Shown: piece by piece, positions 1-13,671 of the stretch
How positions within the stretch are numbered: position 1 is the stretch's first letter
Layout of the letters: each line of letters starts with the position of its first letter
Translations under genes and position numbers: made by a program
From: Sphingopyxis sp. HIX
Lineage (GTDB): Bacteria; Pseudomonadota; Alphaproteobacteria; Sphingomonadales; Sphingomonadaceae
Direction: 5' to 3'
Assembly (NCBI RefSeq): GCF_001468285.1
Contig: NZ_LNSB01000002.1
Location: forward strand, 62,001-126,000
DNA length: 64,000 nucleotides
Notes under the pieces: generated by a model
Database searches by the model: none
Told to the model about the DNA's origin: nothing
What the model saw: the letters and a program-made list of their open reading frames with translations, nothing else

Positions 1-568
1 CGAACGCCTGGAAGGCCCGGGCATGGGCGTCGAACACCATCTCCTGGGTCTCGCGCGGATAGGCCCGGATGTAGAAGCGGCGGCTATGGCAGAGGCGCAC
101 GTGGGCGACCTTCACCGTCAGAGGTGTGCCGCCGATCTCGACCTGCTCGTGGCTCCAGTCGAACTGATAGGCGTCGCCCGGCGCGAAGCTCAACGGCACG
201 AAGGCCTCGACCGGAGAGCTCACGCCTCGGTGCTGAACCGACCAGCGCCCCGCATAGCGCCGCACCGCGTCGTAACCGCCGTCATAGCCCTCCCGGCGCA
301 GCAGATCGCTGATCCGCATCAGCGTCAGCCGATCCTTGCGAGCGCCGGACGCATTGGCCTCCAGTAGCGCCTCCAGCCGCTCGATGAACGGCCCCAGCTT
401 CGGGTGCGGCTGCTCGCGGCGCTCGTACTCCAGCGAGGTCGCTCCCGACCTCAAAACCTTGCGCACCGTGTTGCGCGCCAGGCCCATCTCCCGCGCGATC
501 GTCTTCACGCCCTTGCCCCGCGCGAAGTGCTCGCGCCGGATCTTCGCCACCGTCTCCACTACCAACAT
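1..568 (-). CDS. istA: IS21-family transposase IstA, partial (N-terminal about 189 residues)
   Basis: The reading frame opens at an ATG at 568 and runs leftward off the window without a stop, so only the N-terminal part is present. The start reads MLVVETVAKIRREHFARGKG and continues into a helix-turn-helix region (TIAREMGLARNTVRKVLR, about residues 24-41), typical of IS21 IstA DNA-binding domains. Near residue 135 lies FDWSHE, which matches the first catalytic Asp region of the DDE integrase fold, followed by CHSRRFYIRAYPRETQ. IstA cuts and joins the element ends and normally works with the ATPase IstB, which would lie to the left outside the window. The family assignment is strong; whether the element is intact cannot be seen. 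Confidence 0.93.
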   Translation of the reverse strand, partial: MLVVETVAKIRREHFARGKGVKTIAREMGLARNTVRKVLRSGATSLEYERREQPHPKLGPFIERLEALLEANASGARKDRLTLMRISDLLRREGYDGGYDAVRRYAGRWSVQHRGVSSPVEAFVPLSFAPGDAYQFDWSHEQVEIGGTPLTVKVAHVRLCHSRRFYIRAYPRETQEMVFDAHARAFQAF

Positions 569-2777: not shown

Positions 2778-2966
2778 CCAATGCTGCGCTGGCATTCCTC
2801 CCGACACGGACTTCTGCCGCTTCAGGCGCAGCGTTCAATCAAGCTGGCGGATTGGCGTCCGCAGCGTGGTACACCCCATAAGAGCCGCTTCGCGATCGCT
2901 GCCAAGTCGACGGCCGCAAAAGGTTTGAAGCCGGGCTTTTGAGAACGGCTCGCAACTAGTGATTGT

Positions 2967-3998
2967 CTAGTCGGCTATCGGTCCAAAACGTCTCCCACTC
3001 GCCATTGCCTTGACGTCGTGCAGCCTGTTGCCAAAGGCCGTGAGGAAATCGTCCGCTTCCAATGCCCACATCTTGAACCGGTTGCCGCTGCGGCGAAACA
3101 CAAGAACCTTGCCGTCATAGAGGTCAAAACCATGCGTTTCAGGGATCGGCAGCGTTATCTTCTCCATCAGATTATTGCCAAGTCTTAAGTCTCGCGAAAC
3201 GAGGCCGCCGCTCGGCGGTTCAAATGTAATGGTCCCGATTACCGAGTTGCGCGCAAGATTCGCAGGGGGATTAAAGCCAAAGAAACCGCTCATCCCTCTC
3301 GGCAAATCGATCTGGTTCCCAGGACGATGCGGTCCACGATTCTGTGTGACGTAGCCAGCCTCAATCCAGAACATGTTTGGGGCTGGTTGGCCGGCTTCGT
3401 CCTCATCTTCAGCCGTTACCGCAGCGAAATCTGCCTTCCAGCGTTCCTCATATATCTCCAGGATATCGTCCAGCGGTGTGGCTTGTGCCCAAAGGTCATC
3501 GGCCATCGCCTCGATATTGCGGATCCTGCGTTCGTATTCCACTTGAACATCGGTGCAGATCGAGGCTCCCGCCTCGATACTCTTCCGCAGGCCGTTTGAG
3601 GAAAAGTTGCCGGACCCTACGATCATCCCCGCTCGGCCGTTGGTACGGTTTGCCAATATCGATGACTTCGCATGGAAGTCTCGGCGGGGCAGAAATCCGT
3701 TTTGCTCGACAATCCACGCCCCATCGTAGATGCGGACCTCCGCATTGGGTTTGTCGCTGATTATCCGTAGGGCGTAAGGCTGGGTCCGTCCGTAATCCAG
3801 CCCGAACAACCATCGCGATTGCGTTCCGGCCCAAAAGGCAGGCGACATCGCAATGCTGAAGGCGGAAGCGCCGGACTGAGTGGCGTAGGCGTATACGCCC
3901 AAATATTCTTCCGAGCCGATCCAATCGTGAGCCCGTTGTATCTCCGAGAGGGTCGTAGGTGAATTCTGATCGCTGTGAAGGAACGTGCGCAGCCTCAT
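2967..3998 (-). CDS. PLD-like nuclease-domain protein, last gene of the putative defence operon
   Basis: The 343-residue protein has a phospholipase-D-like core: HAK at about residues 109-111 and GSGNFSSNGL at about 128-137, the pattern of single-motif PLD nucleases. The usual Asp of HxKxxxxD is not at its expected place, so the motif is degenerate. No second HKD motif is visible; single-motif PLD enzymes work as dimers. The start is taken at the ATG whose first bases overlap the stop of the GIY-YIG gene (ATGA), giving MRLRTFLHSD. A longer frame upstream is ignored because it would lie within the previous gene. Role inferred from context: nuclease arm of a restriction-like system, comparable in placement, not in gene set, to DrmC of DISARM. 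Confidence 0.78.
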   Translation of the reverse strand: MRLRTFLHSDQNSPTTLSEIQRAHDWIGSEEYLGVYAYATQSGASAFSIAMSPAFWAGTQSRWLFGLDYGRTQPYALRIISDKPNAEVRIYDGAWIVEQNGFLPRRDFHAKSSILANRTNGRAGMIVGSGNFSSNGLRKSIEAGASICTDVQVEYERRIRNIEAMADDLWAQATPLDDILEIYEERWKADFAAVTAEDEDEAGQPAPNMFWIEAGYVTQNRGPHRPGNQIDLPRGMSGFFGFNPPANLARNSVIGTITFEPPSGGLVSRDLRLGNNLMEKITLPIPETHGFDLYDGKVLVFRRSGNRFKMWALEADDFLTAFGNRLHDVKAMASGRRFGPIAD

Positions 3999-5185
3999 GC
4001 CTTGTTCCCCGATCGAACGAGGGCGGCTTTGCTTGGGTCGTAAACGAACCCAGTGATCGAGCCGTCTTTGATGCGATCGACCGCTTCGTCGATGACGAAC
4101 AGCGGCACAAGAAACCATTCCTGCGGCACCACAGGATTACCGAAGCGATCGGTAATGGTGATGTCCAGCCGCGCGGGATCGAAAACGCGGTGGATGAGAC
4201 GCTCCAGCTTGGCACGATTGATGTTGAAGAGATCGTAGGTCGCGACGATTTCTACGTCGGCCATCATGAATGTCGGCTGCAAGCGCGCGCCTGCGATACG
4301 CTGTTCGACACTCATGTTCGTTACGCCGATCTTGTGGACCAGATCGCGATTAGCGGCAACGGTTGGATAATCGGACTTGCTCCGAAGCACGTAGATCGTG
4401 CCGGAAGCCAGATCATCGCCGGCGTGCTCACCGGAAAACAGCGGCCCTGCAACGGGGTCGGTTATACGCCTTCCGACCTCGTCTTTATGCAGCGCCCGCT
4501 GGAGCGAGCGCATGAGCATATTGCTCTCGGTGCCGTTGTCGAAAACCACACGGAGCCGAGCATCGGTCTTGCCCTGCGCGTTGACGAAGACCTCCTCCAT
4601 ATCGGCAACATAAGCCTTTTGCCCGCTGACGATGAACCATGCGCCGGGGCCGATCTCCGCTTTCATTTCGAACGGACGCGTTTCGCGCAGACCGGAATCG
4701 ATCTCGGCCTGAACGGCTTCGAACAAAGGTTCAAACCGCTCAAAATCCTCACACCGCTCACGGTTGGCGATTTCCTCCGCTGCACGCTTTTCGGCGGTCG
4801 TTCGCACATGACGAAGTTCGGTGATGTCGGCCGATCCTGCCGCGCCTTCTAGCTCGGCGAGTAGCTCATCCTCGTCCATTTCCTCCACCGACGAGGCGGA
4901 AGCGCTCTCCGCACCAGTCAGCAATCCTTGATGGTCGAGCGGCGCTAGAAGGGAGTGGCACTCCTCTAGACCACGAAGACGGTCAAGCCGGACGGCATAG
5001 AGCCGCTCGAAAACATCCCCTTCTTCGCCGTGCTTCGGGGCGCGGCCATGCTCCTCGGTGAAGCGCTGGATTTCCTCAAAACCCGCAATGATGCGCTCCT
5101 CACGCTGGGAGCGTCCGGCGTTCTTTTCCGGCTGGGCAAACTCGGCCAGCTCCTCGCGCAGTTCATCGAGGTTGAGATCACTCAT
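3995..5185 (-). CDS. GIY-YIG nuclease-domain protein (T5orf172/MUG113-like)
   Basis: The 396-residue product has an acidic, probably helical N-terminal half (about residues 1-170, with runs such as EEMDEDELLAELEGAA) and a C-terminal GIY-YIG type domain. The two strands are GTIYVLRS (about 262-269) and KIGVTN (about 285-290), followed by a conserved Arg (EQRI) and by a Glu in AKLERLIHRVF (about 328), as expected for the catalytic Glu. This arrangement matches the T5orf172 branch, which cuts DNA. The start ATG at 5185 overlaps the helicase stop by 8 bp, and its own stop overlaps the PLD gene by 4 bp. I infer a nuclease acting with the helicase and methyltransferase. Confidence 0.8.
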   Translation of the reverse strand: MSDLNLDELREELAEFAQPEKNAGRSQREERIIAGFEEIQRFTEEHGRAPKHGEEGDVFERLYAVRLDRLRGLEECHSLLAPLDHQGLLTGAESASASSVEEMDEDELLAELEGAAGSADITELRHVRTTAEKRAAEEIANRERCEDFERFEPLFEAVQAEIDSGLRETRPFEMKAEIGPGAWFIVSGQKAYVADMEEVFVNAQGKTDARLRVVFDNGTESNMLMRSLQRALHKDEVGRRITDPVAGPLFSGEHAGDDLASGTIYVLRSKSDYPTVAANRDLVHKIGVTNMSVEQRIAGARLQPTFMMADVEIVATYDLFNINRAKLERLIHRVFDPARLDITITDRFGNPVVPQEWFLVPLFVIDEAVDRIKDGSITGFVYDPSKAALVRSGNKA

Positions 5186-7223
5186 AGCGGCCCTCATCCT
5201 TGAAGCGGACAAACGCGGCCGCGCCCTCTGCCATGCGCTTTTCCCACGCATCGGTCGCACTGATGGAAGGAAGCCGTCCGCGCTCGTTCTTGAACTTCAC
5301 GGCGCGCACGGCCAGTTCCTTGGCCTCATCGGGCGTGAGGGTCGTGCGTTTGGCTGCGATGGCGGCAGCTACCTGTTTGAGGCTTTCCTCGCTCATCGTT
5401 TTTGCAAGGATGGCGTATGCTTCGCCGAATGGGTTGATCCGGTCGATAAGATCAATGTCGAGTTCGGTGACGCTAAGCGCGAATTTACGCACGCCATCGA
5501 TCAGGGCAGTGTTAGCGCTCGGCTCGCCATCTGCTTCCTTCTTCGCCTGCTGCGTCAGGGTGAGCGCGGCGATAGCGTGCTGGCGCACCGCCTCCTGGTC
5601 CTCGTCGCTCAGCTCGGGATACTTATCCTTGATGATCTTCCCGAGACGCACTTGCGTAAGCTCCTCTGGCACGAGCTCCTCGTCGAACAGACCTCTCTCG
5701 ATCGCGGTCTTGTCTTGCACGAAGGCCGCGATCACCTCGTTGAGGTCCTCCTGACAGATGCGCGCAGCTTCGCTGGATTTAGGCTCCACAAGCCCGTTGA
5801 TTTCGATCTGGAACTGGCCGGTCTGCTCGTTGAAGCCGACATTGCATTTGGTGGGGTCGTATCCGCCTTCGCCATAGTCGAAGCCAGGCGAAGGGCCGCT
5901 CGCCGGATTCTTTGGCTTGAATTCGAAGCGCGGCGCAAGAACCTGCTCCATGAGGAGGCTTGCGGCGATGGCCTTAAGTGTGTCGTTCACCGCTTCGGTA
6001 ACAGCCGCCTCCGACGCATCGGGTTCCGCGATCAGATTGGTGAAGCGAGCACGGGTCTTGTTCGGCGCATCTCTCGTGGCGCGTCCAATGATCTGGACGA
6101 TCTCGGTCAGGCTGGAGCGGTATCCGACTGTGAGGGCATGCTCACACCAAATCCAGTCAAAACCCTCCTTCGCCATCCCGAGCGCGATGATGATGTCCAC
6201 AAAATCTCGGTTGTTCTTCTGCCTGGGATCCTTGAGCGCCAGCGAGACACGATCCCGCTTGACCGGATCGTCATCGACGAGATCGGCGATGCGCAGAATT
6301 CGCCCCTCGAGCGTTTTGACGAGTTGAAAGCCTGTGAGCGGATCAGCCCCTTGCCACTCGCCCAGCTCGCCGATGATGTGCTCGACCTCCTTGATCTTGT
6401 CCTTCGTGCTCTCGCGCGAGTTGACGTTCGGAATGTGGATGATCGTCTTCTCGGCGGGATCAAGCACCCCAAGAATGTCGTCGGCATAGGAGCCGGAATA
6501 AAAGAAGTATCCGATGTCGAGTTGCTTGAGATACTCGTAGCCGTTGAGCTGCTCGTAATAGGTGTAGGTGACGCTCTCGAACTTCGCTTCGTCGTGCGGC
6601 GCGAGCACGGCCTCCGCGTCGCCACGGAAATACGAGCCCGTCATCGCCACGATATGCACGCGGTCACGGGCCATAAACTGGCCGAGATGCTGACCGAGCT
6701 TGTTGTCGGGATTGGCCGAGACGTGGTGGAACTCGTCCACCGCGATCAGGCGGCCATCGAATCGCTCCACGCCGTATTCGTCCACGGCGAAGCGGAACGT
6801 GGCGTGGGTGCAAACCAGCACCTTGTCCTCGCTATCAAGAAAGGCGACGACGGACTTGACCTTACCGCCGTTGTCCCCGCCAGGCGCATTGCAGAGATTC
6901 CACCTCGGCTCGACATGCCAGTCGGCCTCAAAGCCGTACCGGGTGAGCGGCTCGTCATTGAAGCTGGAGCCGATCGATTTTTCCGGCACGACGATGATAG
7001 CCTGCTTCACGTCTTGATGCGCCAGCTTGTCGAGCGCGATGAACATCAGCGCACGGCTTTTCCCGGAGGCTGGAGGCGACTTGATGAGAAGGTACTGCTC
7101 ACCGCGCTTTTCGAAGGCGCGCTCCTGCATGGGCCGCATGCCGAGCGCATTGGCTTTGGTCGAAGCGCCGTTGCGCACATATGAAACCGAAACAGAGGGG
7201 ACGGATCTCTTTTCGTCGGTCAT
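5178..7223 (-). CDS. DEAD/DEAH-box superfamily 2 helicase
   Basis: The 681-residue protein has the SF2 helicase motifs in order: Walker A SPPASGKS (49-56), DEAH-type box DEFHH (163-167), motif III-like AMTGSY (about 193-198), motif V-like ALGMAKEGFDW (347-357) and motif VI QIIGRATRDA (377-386). This resembles type III Res and related restriction helicases, but no nuclease motif was seen in the C-terminal 280 residues. Its stop is overlapped by the GIY-YIG start, and its start ATG overlaps the methyltransferase stop by 4 bp. The likely role is ATP-driven translocation or DNA opening for the nucleases. It is too short to be DrmA, and no DUF1998 partner is present. Confidence 0.9.
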   Translation of the reverse strand: MTDEKRSVPSVSVSYVRNGASTKANALGMRPMQERAFEKRGEQYLLIKSPPASGKSRALMFIALDKLAHQDVKQAIIVVPEKSIGSSFNDEPLTRYGFEADWHVEPRWNLCNAPGGDNGGKVKSVVAFLDSEDKVLVCTHATFRFAVDEYGVERFDGRLIAVDEFHHVSANPDNKLGQHLGQFMARDRVHIVAMTGSYFRGDAEAVLAPHDEAKFESVTYTYYEQLNGYEYLKQLDIGYFFYSGSYADDILGVLDPAEKTIIHIPNVNSRESTKDKIKEVEHIIGELGEWQGADPLTGFQLVKTLEGRILRIADLVDDDPVKRDRVSLALKDPRQKNNRDFVDIIIALGMAKEGFDWIWCEHALTVGYRSSLTEIVQIIGRATRDAPNKTRARFTNLIAEPDASEAAVTEAVNDTLKAIAASLLMEQVLAPRFEFKPKNPASGPSPGFDYGEGGYDPTKCNVGFNEQTGQFQIEINGLVEPKSSEAARICQEDLNEVIAAFVQDKTAIERGLFDEELVPEELTQVRLGKIIKDKYPELSDEDQEAVRQHAIAALTLTQQAKKEADGEPSANTALIDGVRKFALSVTELDIDLIDRINPFGEAYAILAKTMSEESLKQVAAAIAAKRTTLTPDEAKELAVRAVKFKNERGRLPSISATDAWEKRMAEGAAAFVRFKDEGRYE

Positions 7224-10000
7224 GCGTTTGCCCCCGCCCTGCGTCTTCTGGTTTCGCCCTGCGAAGTGGTCATCTTCGTGTAAAGATCGAACAGTTTCTC
7301 CAGCCGCTCGGTATCATTGCGAAATCTCCGCCCGATATAGATGCGCTCCAGAACCTCGTCGTTGTGCTCGTGCGCCTGCCGCAGGTCAGACGGCATGTGC
7401 TCGGGCTCATAGAGATCTGCAATCGTTGCAGGAAAATGGGCCTCACGGGCGAGGAGAATATCTTCCGCGCATCGTGTCAGATCAGCCTTGTTCTTGTCGG
7501 TGAGGATTGGAACCGGAAAGGTGTTCCAGCCAATCGTATTCGAGTATCGGAAGTCCGTTTTTAGCTTTCCGCAGACGGTGGCGACCCAGACCAGATGAAG
7601 CCGCGACGCCACGATCGACATATTCCACAACGGTGCATCGTAGAGGGCGAACAACAGATCGCTTACGATCGTCTCCCGATCGAAAAGATGCACGGGCAGG
7701 TAGGGGCGTCTTTCCGACGACACTTTCGCCACGGCCAGTGTGTAGCGCTTGGCAGTGCCCGCGATCTGGACGAACCGATAGGGCTTGGAAGCGAAATCCC
7801 GAGTCGATGCGGCTGCGCTGCTGGCGCGGAAATCCCGCACGCGGGCTAACAGGGCTCGTAAATATGGGTGGGCCTCCGCAAACTCGGAGTCCTTGGCCTC
7901 GATCCAAACGCACCAGCGGGGCTTTCCCTGAATCATCTGCTCGGAGCCCAGATAGGGCCGGACGAACCGACCCAACTCGGGATACTGGTGGAGAACCTGC
8001 CTACGCTCATCTGGCGACAAGATGAAATGGCCGCCATCACGCGGCATGTTTCCAAAGAGCATTGGAGATAGACCTCCGATCGGGCTTCGTGCCGCATCGA
8101 CGGAAGTGTTGGCGCCGGCCGCAAGGTAGGCGTTGATGTTGCTCACCTGCCGCTCGGTCACCGAACCGTCATCGGCGATCGAGAACAGGCGTTTGGAAGC
8201 CGGTGCCTCCCGCGAAATGGCGACGATTGCCACAATCACGCCCGCGTTGTGGCTCGCAAGATTGGCCCATTTGAATGAGGTATGGGCAAACGAGATCTGG
8301 TGGCCGGTGCCGAAAATCAGGGGCCACAGGATCGGAACCTGTTGTCCCTGACAGACCGAATTGGTTGAAACGAACGCCGCAGCGGCGTTCGATCTCAAGC
8401 CGTAATCCGCAGCCTTCATGAACCAGCCTGCGACATAGTCTAGGGACTTCCATGCGGGCGTGCGACTGTCAAAAATCGCCCTTAAATCGTCCTTCTGATC
8501 CTCGTTCTGCCACTTACTTCCGAGGTAAGGCGGGTTACCACAAATGTACGTTTCGCCACCCTCATTCTCGAAGTCGATTTGAGCCTGGTCGAGCGGGATG
8601 CTGAATAGATCTTCACCTACCAGTTTCACCCCTGTTCCGGTTGGAGGGCAAATGCTTAGCCAATCTAGGCGCAGGGCGTTGCCTCTAAAAATCCAGTTCT
8701 GGGCATCAAGCGGCAGAAGGTCCGCAAGAGCCAGCTTTTGGCCTCGATAGAGCACGTCGCACTGGTACTCTGCAATTATGAGCGCAAGTCTCGCAATCTC
8801 TGCAGGGAAGTCACGCAACTCGATACCGCGGAAGTTCGTCACCGGGATATCAGAAGGTCGATCGGCTTCGCCACGCCGCGTGTTGATAGTGGCTTCGATA
8901 TCGCGCATTTCCTTGTAGGCAATGACAAGGAAATTTCCGCTGCCGCAGGCTGGATCGAACACTCTGATTTTCGATAAGCGTTTGCGCAGATTAAATAGCG
9001 TGCGAGCGTTGTCGCCAGCTTCTTCGAGCCGCTGCCGCAAATCATCGAGGAATAGCGGATTCAGTACCTTCAGAATGTTCGGCACGCTGGTGTAGTGCAT
9101 CCCGAGCGCACTGCGCTCTTCGTCGTCTGCGACGGCTTGGATCATCGACCCAAAAATATCGGGATTGATCTGCCTCCAGTCGAGCTTCCCTATATGGATT
9201 AAATATGATCGCGCGATCCGGCTGAAGCTCGGTACGTCCGTGTTTCCCGAGAACAGCCCGCCGTTCACGTAGGGAAACGGCTCGGCCCATCGAGGAAGAG
9301 ACGCCGAACTTCGATCTTCGCCTTTGGTGTTCATTGCGCGGAAGAGCGTGCCTATGACACTATGGGTGTTTGACGAGTCTTTCGCGCTCATCTTATCGAT
9401 TGTGTCGGTAAATAGCCTTGTCTTGCTGAAGATGTCTGTGTCTTCGGCGAAAAAGCAGAAGATCAAGCGCGCCATGAAATGATTCATGTCGGGCCGCCGC
9501 TCTGCCGTGCCCCAATCAGGATTGTCCTTCAAAAGCTCGACATAGAGGCGATTGAGGCGACTAGTCGCTCTGATGTCGAACGAGTTATCGCGGATTTGCT
9601 GAACGGTCGAAATCCCTGCAAGCGGCAGGAAGAAGCCGAAATGATCAGGAAAATCCCCATATGCGGACGCGACGGTCTCGCCGCTCTCGATATCTTCCGC
9701 CTCGAACATATCGCCATCCGTCGCGAGCACGAACTTCGCCTTGGCCCGCGAGGTGGCTGGACTGGCCCTTAGCGCGAGAAGGGTTTTCGTGACCTCTCCC
9801 ACGGCGCAGCTAACGATATGGATGTTGTTAGTTTGGAGGACTCCGCCCATGTCCGACTTGTTCGACACGCCGCTTCGCAGGCGCTTGATAGTGGTTTCCT
9901 TGTTGCCGAAGGCCTCTAGAAACGCGAAGGGGAATTCCACTGGGTCGAATGGGCGCTCGGCCAAATCGCTAACGGCTTGCTCAATTTCAACCGCGTTCAT
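7220..10000 (-). CDS. MmeI-like class I SAM-dependent DNA adenine methyltransferase
   Basis: The 926-residue enzyme carries the SAM-binding motif FDPACGSGNF (348-357) and the catalytic motif IV NPPY (489-492), in the order of N6-adenine methyltransferases of the MmeI/type IIG group. The block GIELRDFPAEIARLAL follows motif I as in that family. The first 340 residues fit the N-terminal and helical spacer regions; I see no convincing D-ExK nuclease motif there, unlike MmeI itself. The C-terminal 350 residues should hold the target-recognition part. It overlaps the regulator gene (ATGA) and the helicase gene by 4 bp. I infer a modification enzyme with cleavage delegated to the downstream GIY-YIG and PLD proteins. 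Confidence 0.88.
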   Translation of the reverse strand: MNAVEIEQAVSDLAERPFDPVEFPFAFLEAFGNKETTIKRLRSGVSNKSDMGGVLQTNNIHIVSCAVGEVTKTLLALRASPATSRAKAKFVLATDGDMFEAEDIESGETVASAYGDFPDHFGFFLPLAGISTVQQIRDNSFDIRATSRLNRLYVELLKDNPDWGTAERRPDMNHFMARLIFCFFAEDTDIFSKTRLFTDTIDKMSAKDSSNTHSVIGTLFRAMNTKGEDRSSASLPRWAEPFPYVNGGLFSGNTDVPSFSRIARSYLIHIGKLDWRQINPDIFGSMIQAVADDEERSALGMHYTSVPNILKVLNPLFLDDLRQRLEEAGDNARTLFNLRKRLSKIRVFDPACGSGNFLVIAYKEMRDIEATINTRRGEADRPSDIPVTNFRGIELRDFPAEIARLALIIAEYQCDVLYRGQKLALADLLPLDAQNWIFRGNALRLDWLSICPPTGTGVKLVGEDLFSIPLDQAQIDFENEGGETYICGNPPYLGSKWQNEDQKDDLRAIFDSRTPAWKSLDYVAGWFMKAADYGLRSNAAAAFVSTNSVCQGQQVPILWPLIFGTGHQISFAHTSFKWANLASHNAGVIVAIVAISREAPASKRLFSIADDGSVTERQVSNINAYLAAGANTSVDAARSPIGGLSPMLFGNMPRDGGHFILSPDERRQVLHQYPELGRFVRPYLGSEQMIQGKPRWCVWIEAKDSEFAEAHPYLRALLARVRDFRASSAAASTRDFASKPYRFVQIAGTAKRYTLAVAKVSSERRPYLPVHLFDRETIVSDLLFALYDAPLWNMSIVASRLHLVWVATVCGKLKTDFRYSNTIGWNTFPVPILTDKNKADLTRCAEDILLAREAHFPATIADLYEPEHMPSDLRQAHEHNDEVLERIYIGRRFRNDTERLEKLFDLYTKMTTSQGETRRRRAGANA

Positions 10001-10173
10001 TTCTTCTCCGCCCCGACTCTTGAAGCGCCCGCATTACTGGTGTGCAAACTGATGTAATTCTTCATAAATTCGCGAATGACTTGTGCAGCAGGCCGGTCCT
10101 GCTCCCGGCATGCTGCTAGGAATTTCTCCCTTAAATCCCGCTCAATGCGGATGCGAAGCCCTGAGTCCTTCAT
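9997..10173 (-). CDS. Small ribbon-helix-helix-like regulator heading the defence operon
   Basis: The 58-residue basic protein begins MKDSGLRIRIERDLREKFLA and continues REQDRPAAQVIREFMKNYI, a short strand followed by two helices as in Arc/MetJ-type ribbon-helix-helix DNA-binding proteins. Its stop overlaps the methyltransferase start (ATGA), so the two are translationally coupled. I chose the ATG at 10173; an ATG at 10200 would add nine residues but lies inside the palindrome at 10180-10202. Such small proteins often repress their own operon, and the adjacent palindrome is a plausible operator. It could instead be an antitoxin-like or accessory factor. Confidence 0.7.
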   Translation of the reverse strand: MKDSGLRIRIERDLREKFLAACREQDRPAAQVIREFMKNYISLHTSNAGASRVGAEKK

Positions 10174-10179
10174 GGCCCT

Positions 10180-10202
10180 ATGTGTACCCGGCGGATACAC
10201 AT
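10180..10202. promoter_or_regulatory. Palindrome upstream of the defence operon, candidate autoregulatory operator
   Basis: The perfect 7-bp arms ATGTGTA (10180-10186) and TACACAT (10196-10202) flank a 9-bp centre. The repeat sits 7 bp upstream of the regulator start codon, overlapping the expected initiation region on the minus strand. Spacing and symmetry fit a ribbon-helix-helix operator. No promoter hexamers were identified with confidence. Confidence 0.55.
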
Positions 10203-10543
10203 GGCACCATCAATTTCGGGACTGGCGTGTCTTAATAAGCCGAAAATCGGGGGACATCTCGGTGGGGTCGGCGGCCAGGCTTTGAAAGCAAACGGTTCAC
10301 AGAACATACACCGCCGCGATGAGGCGCAGGCCTCTGCCGGCCGGGGCTGGCACTGGGCCATACAGGGAAGGCCGAGTATCGGAGCTCATCGCAGGTGATG
10401 TCCGTGCTCCAAGCCCGGCTCAAAGTTGTGGAAACTGGAGTGGGTCTACTCCGCCCCGCCGTCACAGACCAAACTGTGACGTAAGTCTGAGTAGCTTCGA
10501 ATGGGGAGCAGTCGCTCGACCCAGAAGTCAATCAAGGCAGGGA
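10203..10543. other. Non-coding gap between the defence operon and tRNA-Arg
   Basis: No convincing gene was found. It holds an 8-bp perfect inverted repeat, CGTCACAG (10460-10467) and CTGTGACG (10474-10481), with a 6-bp spacer. This gap should contain the promoter of the defence operon. A plus-strand frame that continues through the tRNA is an artefact of reading the antisense of the tRNA. Confidence 0.5.
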
Positions 10544-10620
10544 TGGCGCACCCATCAGGATTCGAACCTGAGACCTCTACCTTCGGAGGGTAGCGCTCTA
10601 TCCAGCTGAGCTATGGGTGC
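10544..10620 (-). tRNA. tRNA-Arg (anticodon CCG)
   Basis: The minus strand folds as a full cloverleaf: acceptor GCACCCA pairing with TGGGTGC, D arm GCTC/GAGC, anticodon stem CTACC/GGTAG with loop CTCCGAA (anticodon CCG, codon CGG), a 5-nt variable loop and T arm TCAGG/CCTGA with TTCGAAT. The discriminator G and the CCA end are encoded. It lies next to a 5' fragment of a second, slightly different tRNA-Arg copy and may have been brought by the island. Confidence 0.95.
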
Positions 10621-10743: not shown

Positions 10744-10787
<44 letters not shown>

Positions 10788-12776: not shown

Positions 12777-12939
12777 GGATTCCCTCTAAACACGGCGATT
12801 CGCGGCATGCAAGCGCCGCGTCGCCTGAGCGCCCCTACTCGGCGCTTGTCCTTGTGGGAAAGCCATGCAACAGGCGGGCCATGGGCGTCGTCCTATCCTT
12901 GCCGAGCGCGGAACGCGGGCTTCGCCGCGGCGTGACGCC

Positions 12940-13671
12940 ATGACCGACGCGGGCCCGGGCCGCGGCGGCGGCGCGATGGTCGAATTCGACCGCGTCGGGC
13001 TGCGTTACGGCCCCGATGCCGAGGTGCTCGCCGACATCAGCTTCAACCTCCAGCCGGGCAGCTTCTATTTCCTCACCGGCCCCTCGGGCGCGGGCAAGAC
13101 CTCGCTGCTCAAGATGCTCTACCTCGCGCAGCGCCCGAGCCGCGGGCTGGTCCGACTGTTCGGCGAGGACCTCGTCCATATGCCGCGCCACCGCCTGCCC
13201 GGCTTTCGCCGCCGCATCGGTGTGGTGTTCCAGGACTTCCGCCTCATTCCGCACCTCAGCGCGCGCGACAATATCGCGCTGCCGCTGCGCATCGCGGGGG
13301 TCAGCGAAGCGGATCTGTCGGGCCCGGTCGGCGAGATGCTGAGCTGGATCGGGCTCGACGAGCGCGCCCACGCCTTTCCCCCGACGCTGTCGGGCGGCGA
13401 GCAGCAGCGCGTCGCGATCGCGCGCGCCGTCATCGCGCGCCCGCAACTGCTCGTCGCCGACGAACCGACGGGCAACGTCGATCCCGAAATGGCGATGCGC
13501 CTCCTCGGCCTGTTCGAGGCGCTCAACCGCCTCGGCACCACGGTGGTCGTCGCGACGCACGACATCCATCTGATCAGCCGCATCGACAATGCGCAGATGA
13601 TGCGGCTCGAAAAGGGCCGCCTCGCCGATCCCACCGGCGCGCTGCGCTATCCGCCGGCAAACAAGATCTAG
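12940..13671 (+). CDS. ftsE: Cell-division ABC ATPase FtsE
   Basis: FtsE powers the FtsEX complex at the division septum, which controls peptidoglycan hydrolases. The protein (243 residues from the chosen ATG) has Walker A GPSGAGKTS (47-55), the ABC signature LSGGEQQR (150-157), Walker B LLVADE (170-175) and the H-loop in ATHDIH. The segment PGSFYFLTGPSGAGKTSLLK is characteristic of alphaproteobacterial FtsE. The reading frame is open further upstream; I chose 12940 (MTDAGPG), and 12976 (MVEFDRVG) is also possible. ftsX follows after 16 bp. Confidence 0.92.
   Translation: MTDAGPGRGGGAMVEFDRVGLRYGPDAEVLADISFNLQPGSFYFLTGPSGAGKTSLLKMLYLAQRPSRGLVRLFGEDLVHMPRHRLPGFRRRIGVVFQDFRLIPHLSARDNIALPLRIAGVSEADLSGPVGEMLSWIGLDERAHAFPPTLSGGEQQRVAIARAVIARPQLLVADEPTGNVDPEMAMRLLGLFEALNRLGTTVVVATHDIHLISRIDNAQMMRLEKGRLADPTGALRYPPANKI

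What the first reader, a model, noticed from the sequence alone, without database searches (positions are those of the whole stretch)
2967..10173. Five-gene coupled operon of methyltransferase, helicase and two nuclease types: candidate novel defence system
One strand carries RHH regulator, MmeI-like adenine methyltransferase (FDPACGSGNF, NPPY), DEAD/DEAH helicase, GIY-YIG protein and PLD-like protein, with every junction overlapping by 4 to 8 bp. The methyltransferase shows no nuclease motif and the helicase has no nuclease tail, so cleavage would be delegated to two separate nuclease families. DISARM has a PLD gene but also needs a DUF1998 gene and a larger helicase, neither of which is here; BREX (PglX/PglZ/BrxC) and classical type I and III systems also do not fit. 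This gene set next to a tRNA island edge looks like an under-described phage-defence or restriction system.
Basis: partly seen in the sequence, partly recalled or inferred. Interest (0 to 1): 0.88.

Follow-up and report, generated by a model that had tools for sequence, protein, structure and literature searches.

The report
DnmA-YeeB-YeeC operon with extra nuclease
This is a known but poorly understood three-gene DNA methylation and restriction operon (methyltransferase, helicase, GIY-YIG protein) that here carries an added phospholipase-D-type nuclease and a small regulator; in other bacteria the place between methyltransferase and helicase is filled by many different genes, several of them defence-related.

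Summary
In detail: five minus-strand genes (RHH, MmeI-like methyltransferase, helicase, GIY-YIG protein, PLD protein) overlap by 4, 4, 8 and 4 bp beside a tRNA-Arg. They are not a new five-gene system. The middle three are the DnmA(YeeA)-YeeB-YeeC cluster known from Bacillus subtilis. That trio is widespread: both partners flank the helicase in 130 of 150 loci; 22 of 398 sampled genomes of the phylum, own included, hold the helicase. The catalytic glutamate of the methyltransferase's nuclease motif is absent in 116 of 116 aligned proteins. RHH (7 of 80 loci) and PLD (10 of 150) are accessory. Helicase and GIY genes overlap in 78 of 78 loci, whereas the methyltransferase-helicase junction holds an insert in 41 of 74. 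Inserts seen include RhuM, YhcG, AlbA_2, PLD, toxins and unknowns. The recognition domain diverges while the genes are under purifying selection. Best reading: a Type I-like restriction system with split motor and nuclease, plus an exchangeable accessory effector, here PLD. Biochemistry is inferred. The slot, and this PLD family beside other methyltransferase systems, are the less-known part.

The parts
9997..10173 (-). small RHH-like protein (58 aa from ATG 10173; 67 aa if GTG 10200), probable regulator; accessory
   Evidence: weak Pfam RHH_9, below cut-off; relatives found by tblastn in 7 of 80 loci
7220..10000 (-). DnmA/YeeA-type MmeI-like N6-adenine DNA methyltransferase with target recognition domain and inactivated N-terminal nuclease domain; core
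   Evidence: Pfam MmeI_N, hel, Mtase, TRD, C; PADLOC REase_MTase_IIG 940 bits; PDB MmeI 5hr4; nuclease motif lost
5178..7223 (-). YeeB-type SF2 helicase/translocase, no recognised nuclease domain; core
   Evidence: Pfam DEAD and ResIII over cut-off; best-segment identity 80-97% in the 80 kept loci, whose titles name several phyla; dN/dS 0.03-0.04 against L002-L004
3995..5185 (-). YeeC-type protein with C-terminal GIY-YIG (T5orf172/MUG113) domain; likely nuclease; core
   Evidence: Pfam; Y265, G287, R296, E328 invariant in 27 sequences; gene overlaps the helicase gene in 78 of 78 loci with both
2967..3998 (-). single-motif PLD-superfamily protein, likely homodimeric nuclease; accessory
   Evidence: H109, K111, G128-S-G-N131 invariant in 7 sequences; profile matches 7clg and 2c1l; 10 of 150 helicase loci; relatives beside other methyltransferases
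10544..10620 (-). tRNA-Arg (CCG) at the cassette edge
   Evidence: blastn homology to Reyranella locus L003 runs 2953-10620, tRNA included
10745..10787 (+). partial second copy of the tRNA-Arg 5' half, probable old attachment site or host remnant
   Evidence: sequence; 10745-10784 is 40 of 40 identical to L003:4311-4350

Best explanation
A DnmA-YeeB-YeeC type restriction-modification/defence operon with an accessory PLD nuclease and a small RHH regulator. The methyltransferase supplies specificity and self-mark (N6-adenine at a non-palindromic site, by homology to DnmA and MmeI) but cannot cut. The YeeB motor and the YeeC GIY-YIG protein, translationally coupled, act as a split restriction subunit: when the methyltransferase meets an unmodified site the ATP-driven motor engages and the GIY-YIG protein cuts (Type I-like, an idea already in print for this cluster). 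The PLD protein is a secondary, exchangeable effector tied to the methyltransferase or the same complex. Shown here: gene content, loss of the nuclease motif, conservation, coupling, purifying selection, divergence of the recognition domain, patchy presence of the PLD gene. Inferred: complex formation, ATP-dependent cleavage, which nuclease cuts, roles of PLD and RHH.
For: Domain assignments. 130 of 150 helicase loci have methyltransferase upstream and GIY downstream; 13 of the 14 without a methyltransferase have the helicase within 1.1 kb of the end of the sequence held. Phylum sample: of 21 non-own genomes with the helicase all 21 have GIY; 19 have a methyltransferase (in L190 it lies in two frames, in L184 and L189 it is incomplete), 1 a remnant (L177), 1 none (L178); PLD in 0. 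Catalytic E absent in 116 of 116 proteins and no row has both E/D and K (K alone in 8), while Type IIL relatives L109 and L110 keep D-x9-E-x-K (MmeI D70/E80/K82, PMC4833311 passages). Helicase-GIY overlap in 78 of 78, methyltransferase-helicase junction interrupted in 41 of 74. TRD median identity to the window 43.6% against 70.2-84.8% for the other four domains, n=99; dN/dS 0.03-0.11 for MT, HEL, GIY and PLD against L002-L004. PMC9973331 states that Vibrio crassostreae mutants in dnmA and yeeB were more sensitive to some phages, citing Piel et al..
Against: In B. subtilis, deletions of yeeB or yeeC had no phage phenotype with three phages, the DnmA motif is not avoided in phage genomes, and dnmA did not restrict plasmid uptake (PMC9973331, PMC7261158, passages). 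The GIY domain has K where the name-giving motif has Y, and EWF near its end (that a terminal Asn is usual is recalled), so nuclease activity is not assured. Structure models were weak (GIY pTM 0.46, helicase pTM 0.33) and Foldseek gave no match at E <= 0.001 for the GIY model. L152, L154 and L157 have a shortened helicase and no GIY, L178 has helicase-GIY without methyltransferase, and L072 has a broken helicase frame, so degraded copies exist.
Confidence: 0.7

Rival explanations
1. Orphan methyltransferase on a dead restriction relic, kept for gene regulation, as proposed for B. subtilis.
For: B. subtilis dnmA alters gene expression and no restriction was found (PMC7261158, PMC9973331).
Against: Here the partner genes are intact and under purifying selection (dN/dS 0.03-0.11), helicase motifs such as the Walker A stretch 50-56 are invariant in 19 sequences, and the recognition domain diverges (median 43.6% identity), which a fixed regulatory role would not predict. 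Vibrio phenotype reported.
Confidence: 0.12
2. The PLD protein is the main restriction nuclease of the methyltransferase (a BfiI-like pair) and helicase-GIY is a separate layer.
For: PLD relatives lie behind methyltransferases where no DnmA-type helicase or GIY was found in the stretch held: behind a Type IIL enzyme with intact motif (L109, L110), behind other N6-methylases (L168, 7 bp overlap; L166, 375 bp gap) and behind the methyltransferase of a DISARM locus (L108).
Against: 140 of 150 helicase loci, some cut by contig ends, show no PLD over 60 bits, so the core must work without it; in the window and L002-L004 it lies last, behind GIY.
Confidence: 0.1
3. Methylation-sensing block of phage replication without DNA cleavage (BREX-like), the nucleases acting only as back-up or on RNA.
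For: PMC9973331 found no avoidance of the DnmA motif in phage genomes; slot genes include families of RNase toxins, BrnT and PIN.
Against: No PglZ- or BrxC-type match among the five proteins or eight neighbours; invariant GIY residues and constant coupling to the motor.
Confidence: 0.08

Closest known systems
DnmA-YeeB-YeeC cluster of Bacillus subtilis and homologues (Vibrio crassostreae)
   Same: MmeI-like methyltransferase without nuclease motif, SF2 helicase, T5orf172 protein, in that order
   Different: the window adds RHH before and PLD after; B. subtilis YeeB and YeeC are said to lack stretches in their C-terminal domain (PMC9973331)
MmeI / Type IIL restriction-modification
   Same: five MmeI domains, 600-bit profile match to 5hr4
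   Different: nuclease motif lost; separate motor and nuclease genes
DISARM (DrmMI, DrmC)
   Same: PLD protein and MmeI-related methyltransferase (DrmMI model 101 bits); a 33%-identical relative of this PLD lies behind the methyltransferase of a DISARM locus
   Different: no DUF1998, DrmA or DrmD match; PLD scores 14.8 bits against the DrmC cut-off of 133
PLD nucleases BfiI (2c1l) and SauUSI (7clg); these two names are recalled, the call lists 'restriction endonuclease' and 'putative helicase'
   Same: one HxK...GSGN motif, profile match
   Different: BfiI carries its own recognition domain and SauUSI is fused to a helicase (recalled)
Restriction-modification operons with embedded genes (RhuM, PrrC, HEPN)
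   Same: defence-related genes inside the operon; PMC3710099 describes RhuM and HEPN genes in R-M operons (passages)
   Different: no HsdS match; insert position here is specifically between methyltransferase and helicase

Membership tests
DnmA-YeeB-YeeC | MmeI-like methyltransferase lacking PD-(D/E)xK | tested here: met
DnmA-YeeB-YeeC | helicase directly downstream, then T5orf172 protein, same strand | tested here: met
   a 68.9%-identical helicase in the same gene order is annotated 'DNA helicase restriction/modification system component YeeB'
DnmA-YeeB-YeeC | direct sequence match to B. subtilis YeeB and YeeC | tested here: inconclusive
   the B. subtilis control genome holds MmeI_TRD, T5orf172 and MmeI_Mtase over cut-off, but its proteins themselves were not aligned
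DnmA-YeeB-YeeC | m6A at a non-palindromic motif | not testable with these tools
   needs a long-read methylome
Type IIL (MmeI) | N-terminal nuclease catalytic D, E, K in the methyltransferase | tested here: not met
   D kept, E and K absent in the window protein
DISARM | DUF1998 gene and DrmA helicase | tested here: not met
   no match among the five proteins or eight neighbours (PADLOC; seven of them also Pfam)
DISARM | DrmC-type PLD | tested here: not met
   14.8 bits v cut-off 133
BREX | PglX with PglZ and BrxC | tested here: not met
   best PglX model 28.4 bits v cut-off 500; no PglZ or BrxC match
Type I / Type III R-M | HsdS specificity subunit, or Mod/Res with nuclease on the helicase | tested here: not met
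   no Pfam specificity-subunit match; helicase has ResIII (26.2 bits) but no nuclease domain by Pfam

The most novel reading that the evidence does not exclude
DnmA-YeeB-YeeC operons are a modular immune platform: the methyltransferase-helicase junction is a dedicated cargo slot into which unrelated, translationally coupled effectors (PLD, RhuM, YhcG nuclease, AlbA_2, PDDEXK_4, YobI-type ATPase, FRG, RNase toxins, unknowns) are swapped while the helicase-GIY pair stays together, and one PLD family serves as effector of several methyltransferase-based systems (DnmA, Type IIL, DISARM).
Probability: 0.55. Interest if true: 0.6.

Novelty: new variant of a known kind. Interest (0 to 1): 0.42.

Why it matters
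It places an apparently new five-gene system in a known but functionally unsettled family, shows that intact and selected copies are common (so the 'relic' verdict from B. subtilis should not be generalised), and points to a fixed cargo slot from which accessory proteins, several without any Pfam or PADLOC match, can be picked for testing. Of the five proteins, PADLOC-DB 2.0.0 matches only the methyltransferase strongly, under a Type IIG name; the helicase, GIY and PLD proteins have only weak matches (E 3e-5 or worse), so they are probably missed in defence annotation (inference).

Tried and rejected
DISARM, BREX, Type I, Type III and stand-alone Type IIL were tested and fail a defining feature (membership table). 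PLD as core component: rejected by its rarity at E <= 1e-8 (2 of 398 phylum, 1 of 385 class, 9 of 396 order genomes, own genome included each time) and 10 of 150 helicase loci, a figure biased upward because L107, L164 and L165 were fetched by their PLD. PLD in viral contigs: 148 pattern matches, none confirmed as a relative. Structure models of GIY and helicase, on 27 and 19 rows, were too weak to identify the unassigned regions; Foldseek on the GIY model gave only weak EF-P/eIF5A-like matches from E=0.0058 upward. No significant PDB sequence relative for GIY or helicase. No second tRNA copy in the 60 kb left of the window on the same contig. Paper search for MmeI with GIY-YIG, helicase, phospholipase D and defense gave no paper with all five terms; a second gave none with 4 of 5. 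Morgan 2009 and Piel 2022 are not held (the DOI of the latter is recalled), so both are known only through citing passages. Sampling caveats: the 80 loci are the best of at least 565 confirmed, hence biased to close relatives and not made non-redundant (L002 and L004 are nearly alike, L137 and L139 too); many are metagenome-assembled, so organism titles may mislead. The 150-locus set excludes the window, L001 and L082-L106 and L113-L119 (short pieces; of these L082 and L085 come from places not otherwise held) and loci without helicase. Slot ORFs were taken by longest frame; small ones may be spurious, and L022 was read worse there than. Family names for slot clusters rest on one representative each. 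In one search a grep slip added the window's methyltransferase letters to the L080 entry and the GIY letters under a wrong name; no count used here rests on those entries.
Full report
What is there. On the minus strand of window 2967-10200 lie five coupled genes: an RHH-like protein, a 926-aa methyltransferase, a 681-aa helicase, a 396-aa GIY-YIG protein and a 343-aa PLD protein. Stop and start codons overlap by 4, 4, 8 and 4 bp. The cassette has GC 0.55-0.60 beside a chromosome of about 0.70 to its right and ends at a tRNA-Arg at 10544-10620, with a partial second copy at about 10745-10787. Eight neighbouring proteins show no defence system: ferritin-like, hydrolase and methionine sulfoxide reductase genes to the left, ordinary genes to the right; only the ABC ATPase at 12865-13671 scores against PADLOC, on models that I take to be of ATPase proteins.

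The core is known. Pfam gives the methyltransferase all five MmeI domains and the GIY protein MUG113 and T5orf172. PADLOC names the methyltransferase REase_MTase_IIG at 940 bits and has only weak matches for the others. Passages of PMC9973331 and PMC7261158 describe the same trio as dnmA(yeeA)-yeeB-yeeC in Bacillus subtilis; they cite Morgan et al. 2009 for MmeI relatives without the nuclease motif flanked by yeeB and yeeC and for the idea of a Type I-like system, and Makarova et al. 2011 for YeeB and YeeC homologues in defence islands. In B. subtilis no restriction or phage protection was found; PMC9973331 states that in Vibrio crassostreae deletion of dnmA or yeeB raised sensitivity to some phages (Piel et al., not read here). 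A plasmid relative in the same gene order is annotated as YeeB. The B. subtilis control genome rings for MmeI_TRD, T5orf172 and MmeI_Mtase; I did not align its proteins.

How general the core is. A scan with the helicase confirmed at least 565 relatives; the best 80 were kept. In these tblastn finds the methyltransferase in 76 of 80 and GIY in 79 of 80, the misses lying at contig ends. In an even draw of 398 genomes of the phylum, 22 including the window's own have the helicase at E <= 1e-60; of the 21 others all have GIY, 19 a methyltransferase (three of these split or incomplete), 1 a remnant and 1 none.

The methyltransferase probably cannot cut by itself. MmeI uses D70, E80 and K82 (PMC4833311, passages). 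Two plasmid Type IIL relatives (L109, L110) keep D-x9-E-x-K. In the other 116 aligned proteins, the window's included, none has E or D in the E column; 8 have K in the K column; none has both. The aspartate is kept in all 100 proteins scoring at least 1000 bits. The alignment is gappy in this stretch for the 14 that score 600-1000 bits and for the two lower ones.

Helicase and GIY genes form one unit. In loci L002-L081 they overlap in 78 of 78 cases, by 8 to 20 bp. In the pooled set 143 of 144 lie within 100 bp; the exception, L072, has a broken helicase frame. By contrast methyltransferase and helicase are within 20 bp in 33 of 74 and more than 250 bp apart in 41 of 74. In loci not the figure is 21 of 60, three of them fetched for their PLD. 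The GIY domain keeps Y265, G287, R296 and E328 in 27 of 27 sequences.

The slot. First ORFs in the methyltransferase-helicase gap begin with a 4-bp overlap on the methyltransferase stop in 38 of 61 cases. Slot ORFs fall into 37 clusters, 11 with two or more members: RhuM (9 members), PLD (7), DUF1016/YhcG nuclease (7), an unassigned 260-aa family (7), unassigned families of about 277 and 140 aa (5 each) and 286 aa (4), PDDEXK_4 (3); smaller ones include SLFN_AlbA_2, YobI-type ATPase, PIN, DUF559, BrnT, FRG and CoiA_N, each named from one representative or a few. RhuM and YhcG match PADLOC candidates PDC-S05 and PDC-S02. Embedded HEPN and RhuM genes in R-M operons are already described in general (PMC3710099, passages), and PMC9973331 remarks that an 'Uncharacterized' protein family in the neighbourhood might be a further member of the dnmA locus in some bacteria. 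Beyond that I found no description of this slot in the listings of searches, which cover only the held open-access library and were not all aimed at it.

The PLD gene. Its profile matches PDB 7clg (1.5e-9) and 2c1l (0.0028), which I recall as SauUSI and BfiI, and it keeps H109, K111 and G128-S-G-N131 in 7 of 7: one motif per chain, hence probably a dimer. It occurs in 10 of 150 helicase loci: after GIY in L002-L004 as in the window, in the slot in the other seven. Relatives lie behind the methyltransferase of a DISARM locus in Methylocystis (33% identity), behind a Type IIL enzyme with intact motif on Methylobacterium and Methylorubrum plasmids (24.7-29.3% identity), and behind other N6-methylases in genomes of the window's own family (L166 with a 375-bp gap, L168 overlapping). 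The large gene before PLD in L169 has no Pfam match at E <= 1e-5, and in L170 I saw no methyltransferase by eye (not scanned). PLD thus looks like a methyltransferase-associated accessory nuclease, with exceptions.

Selection and mobility. Against L002-L004 dN/dS is about 0.05 (methyltransferase), 0.03-0.04 (helicase), 0.06-0.11 (GIY), 0.06-0.09 (PLD) and 0.11-0.18 (RHH). The recognition domain has a median identity to the window of 43.6% against 70.2-84.8% for the other four domains (n=99), as expected if target sites are switched. In Reyranella (L003) homology runs through the five genes and the tRNA-Arg; in the Sphingomonas loci L002 and L004 it stops at 10217. So the cassette is mobile between genera. 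To the left GC stays mostly at 0.59-0.63 for some 40 kb, with conjugation-like and IS-like genes judged by eye.

Conclusion. A DnmA-YeeB-YeeC operon, intact and selected, with an accessory PLD nuclease and a small regulator. I commit to a Type I-like mechanism with split motor and nuclease (0.7); it has not been shown biochemically.

Noticed in passing
window 10544-10620 and 10745-10787; L003:4600-4676 and 4311-4352: tRNA-Arg plus a partial copy of its 5' half on the far side, both in the window and in Reyranella beside the same cassette: an attachment-site-like arrangement in which the mobile unit may bring its own tRNA.
   Followed up: partly
L108, L109, L110, L166, L168: relatives of the PLD protein behind DISARM, intact Type IIL and other N6-methyltransferases.
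   Followed up: partly
L085:1474-3431; L167:5651-8667: distant PLD relatives behind thiC (Pfam); in L085 the PLD gene ends 4 bp into a convergent N6_N4_Mtase gene.
   Followed up: partly
L019:1343-2125, L021:7171-8004, L010:7147-8004, L043:7585-7998: representatives of four recurrent slot families without Pfam (E <= 0.01) or PADLOC (E <= 0.001) match.
   Followed up: partly
window 2-568 and left of it: IS21-like transposase genes, by eye only (no Pfam match for the 189-aa piece in the window); IS66-like and conjugation-like genes further left.
   Followed up: no
L120-L163: 44 contigs of a viral collection carry the helicase, 30 of 44 with both partners, so prophages or misassigned islands transport this operon.
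   Followed up: no
G002, G004, G011, G012: four genomes of the window's genus have two MmeI_TRD matches each, the second in some of them weak.
   Followed up: no
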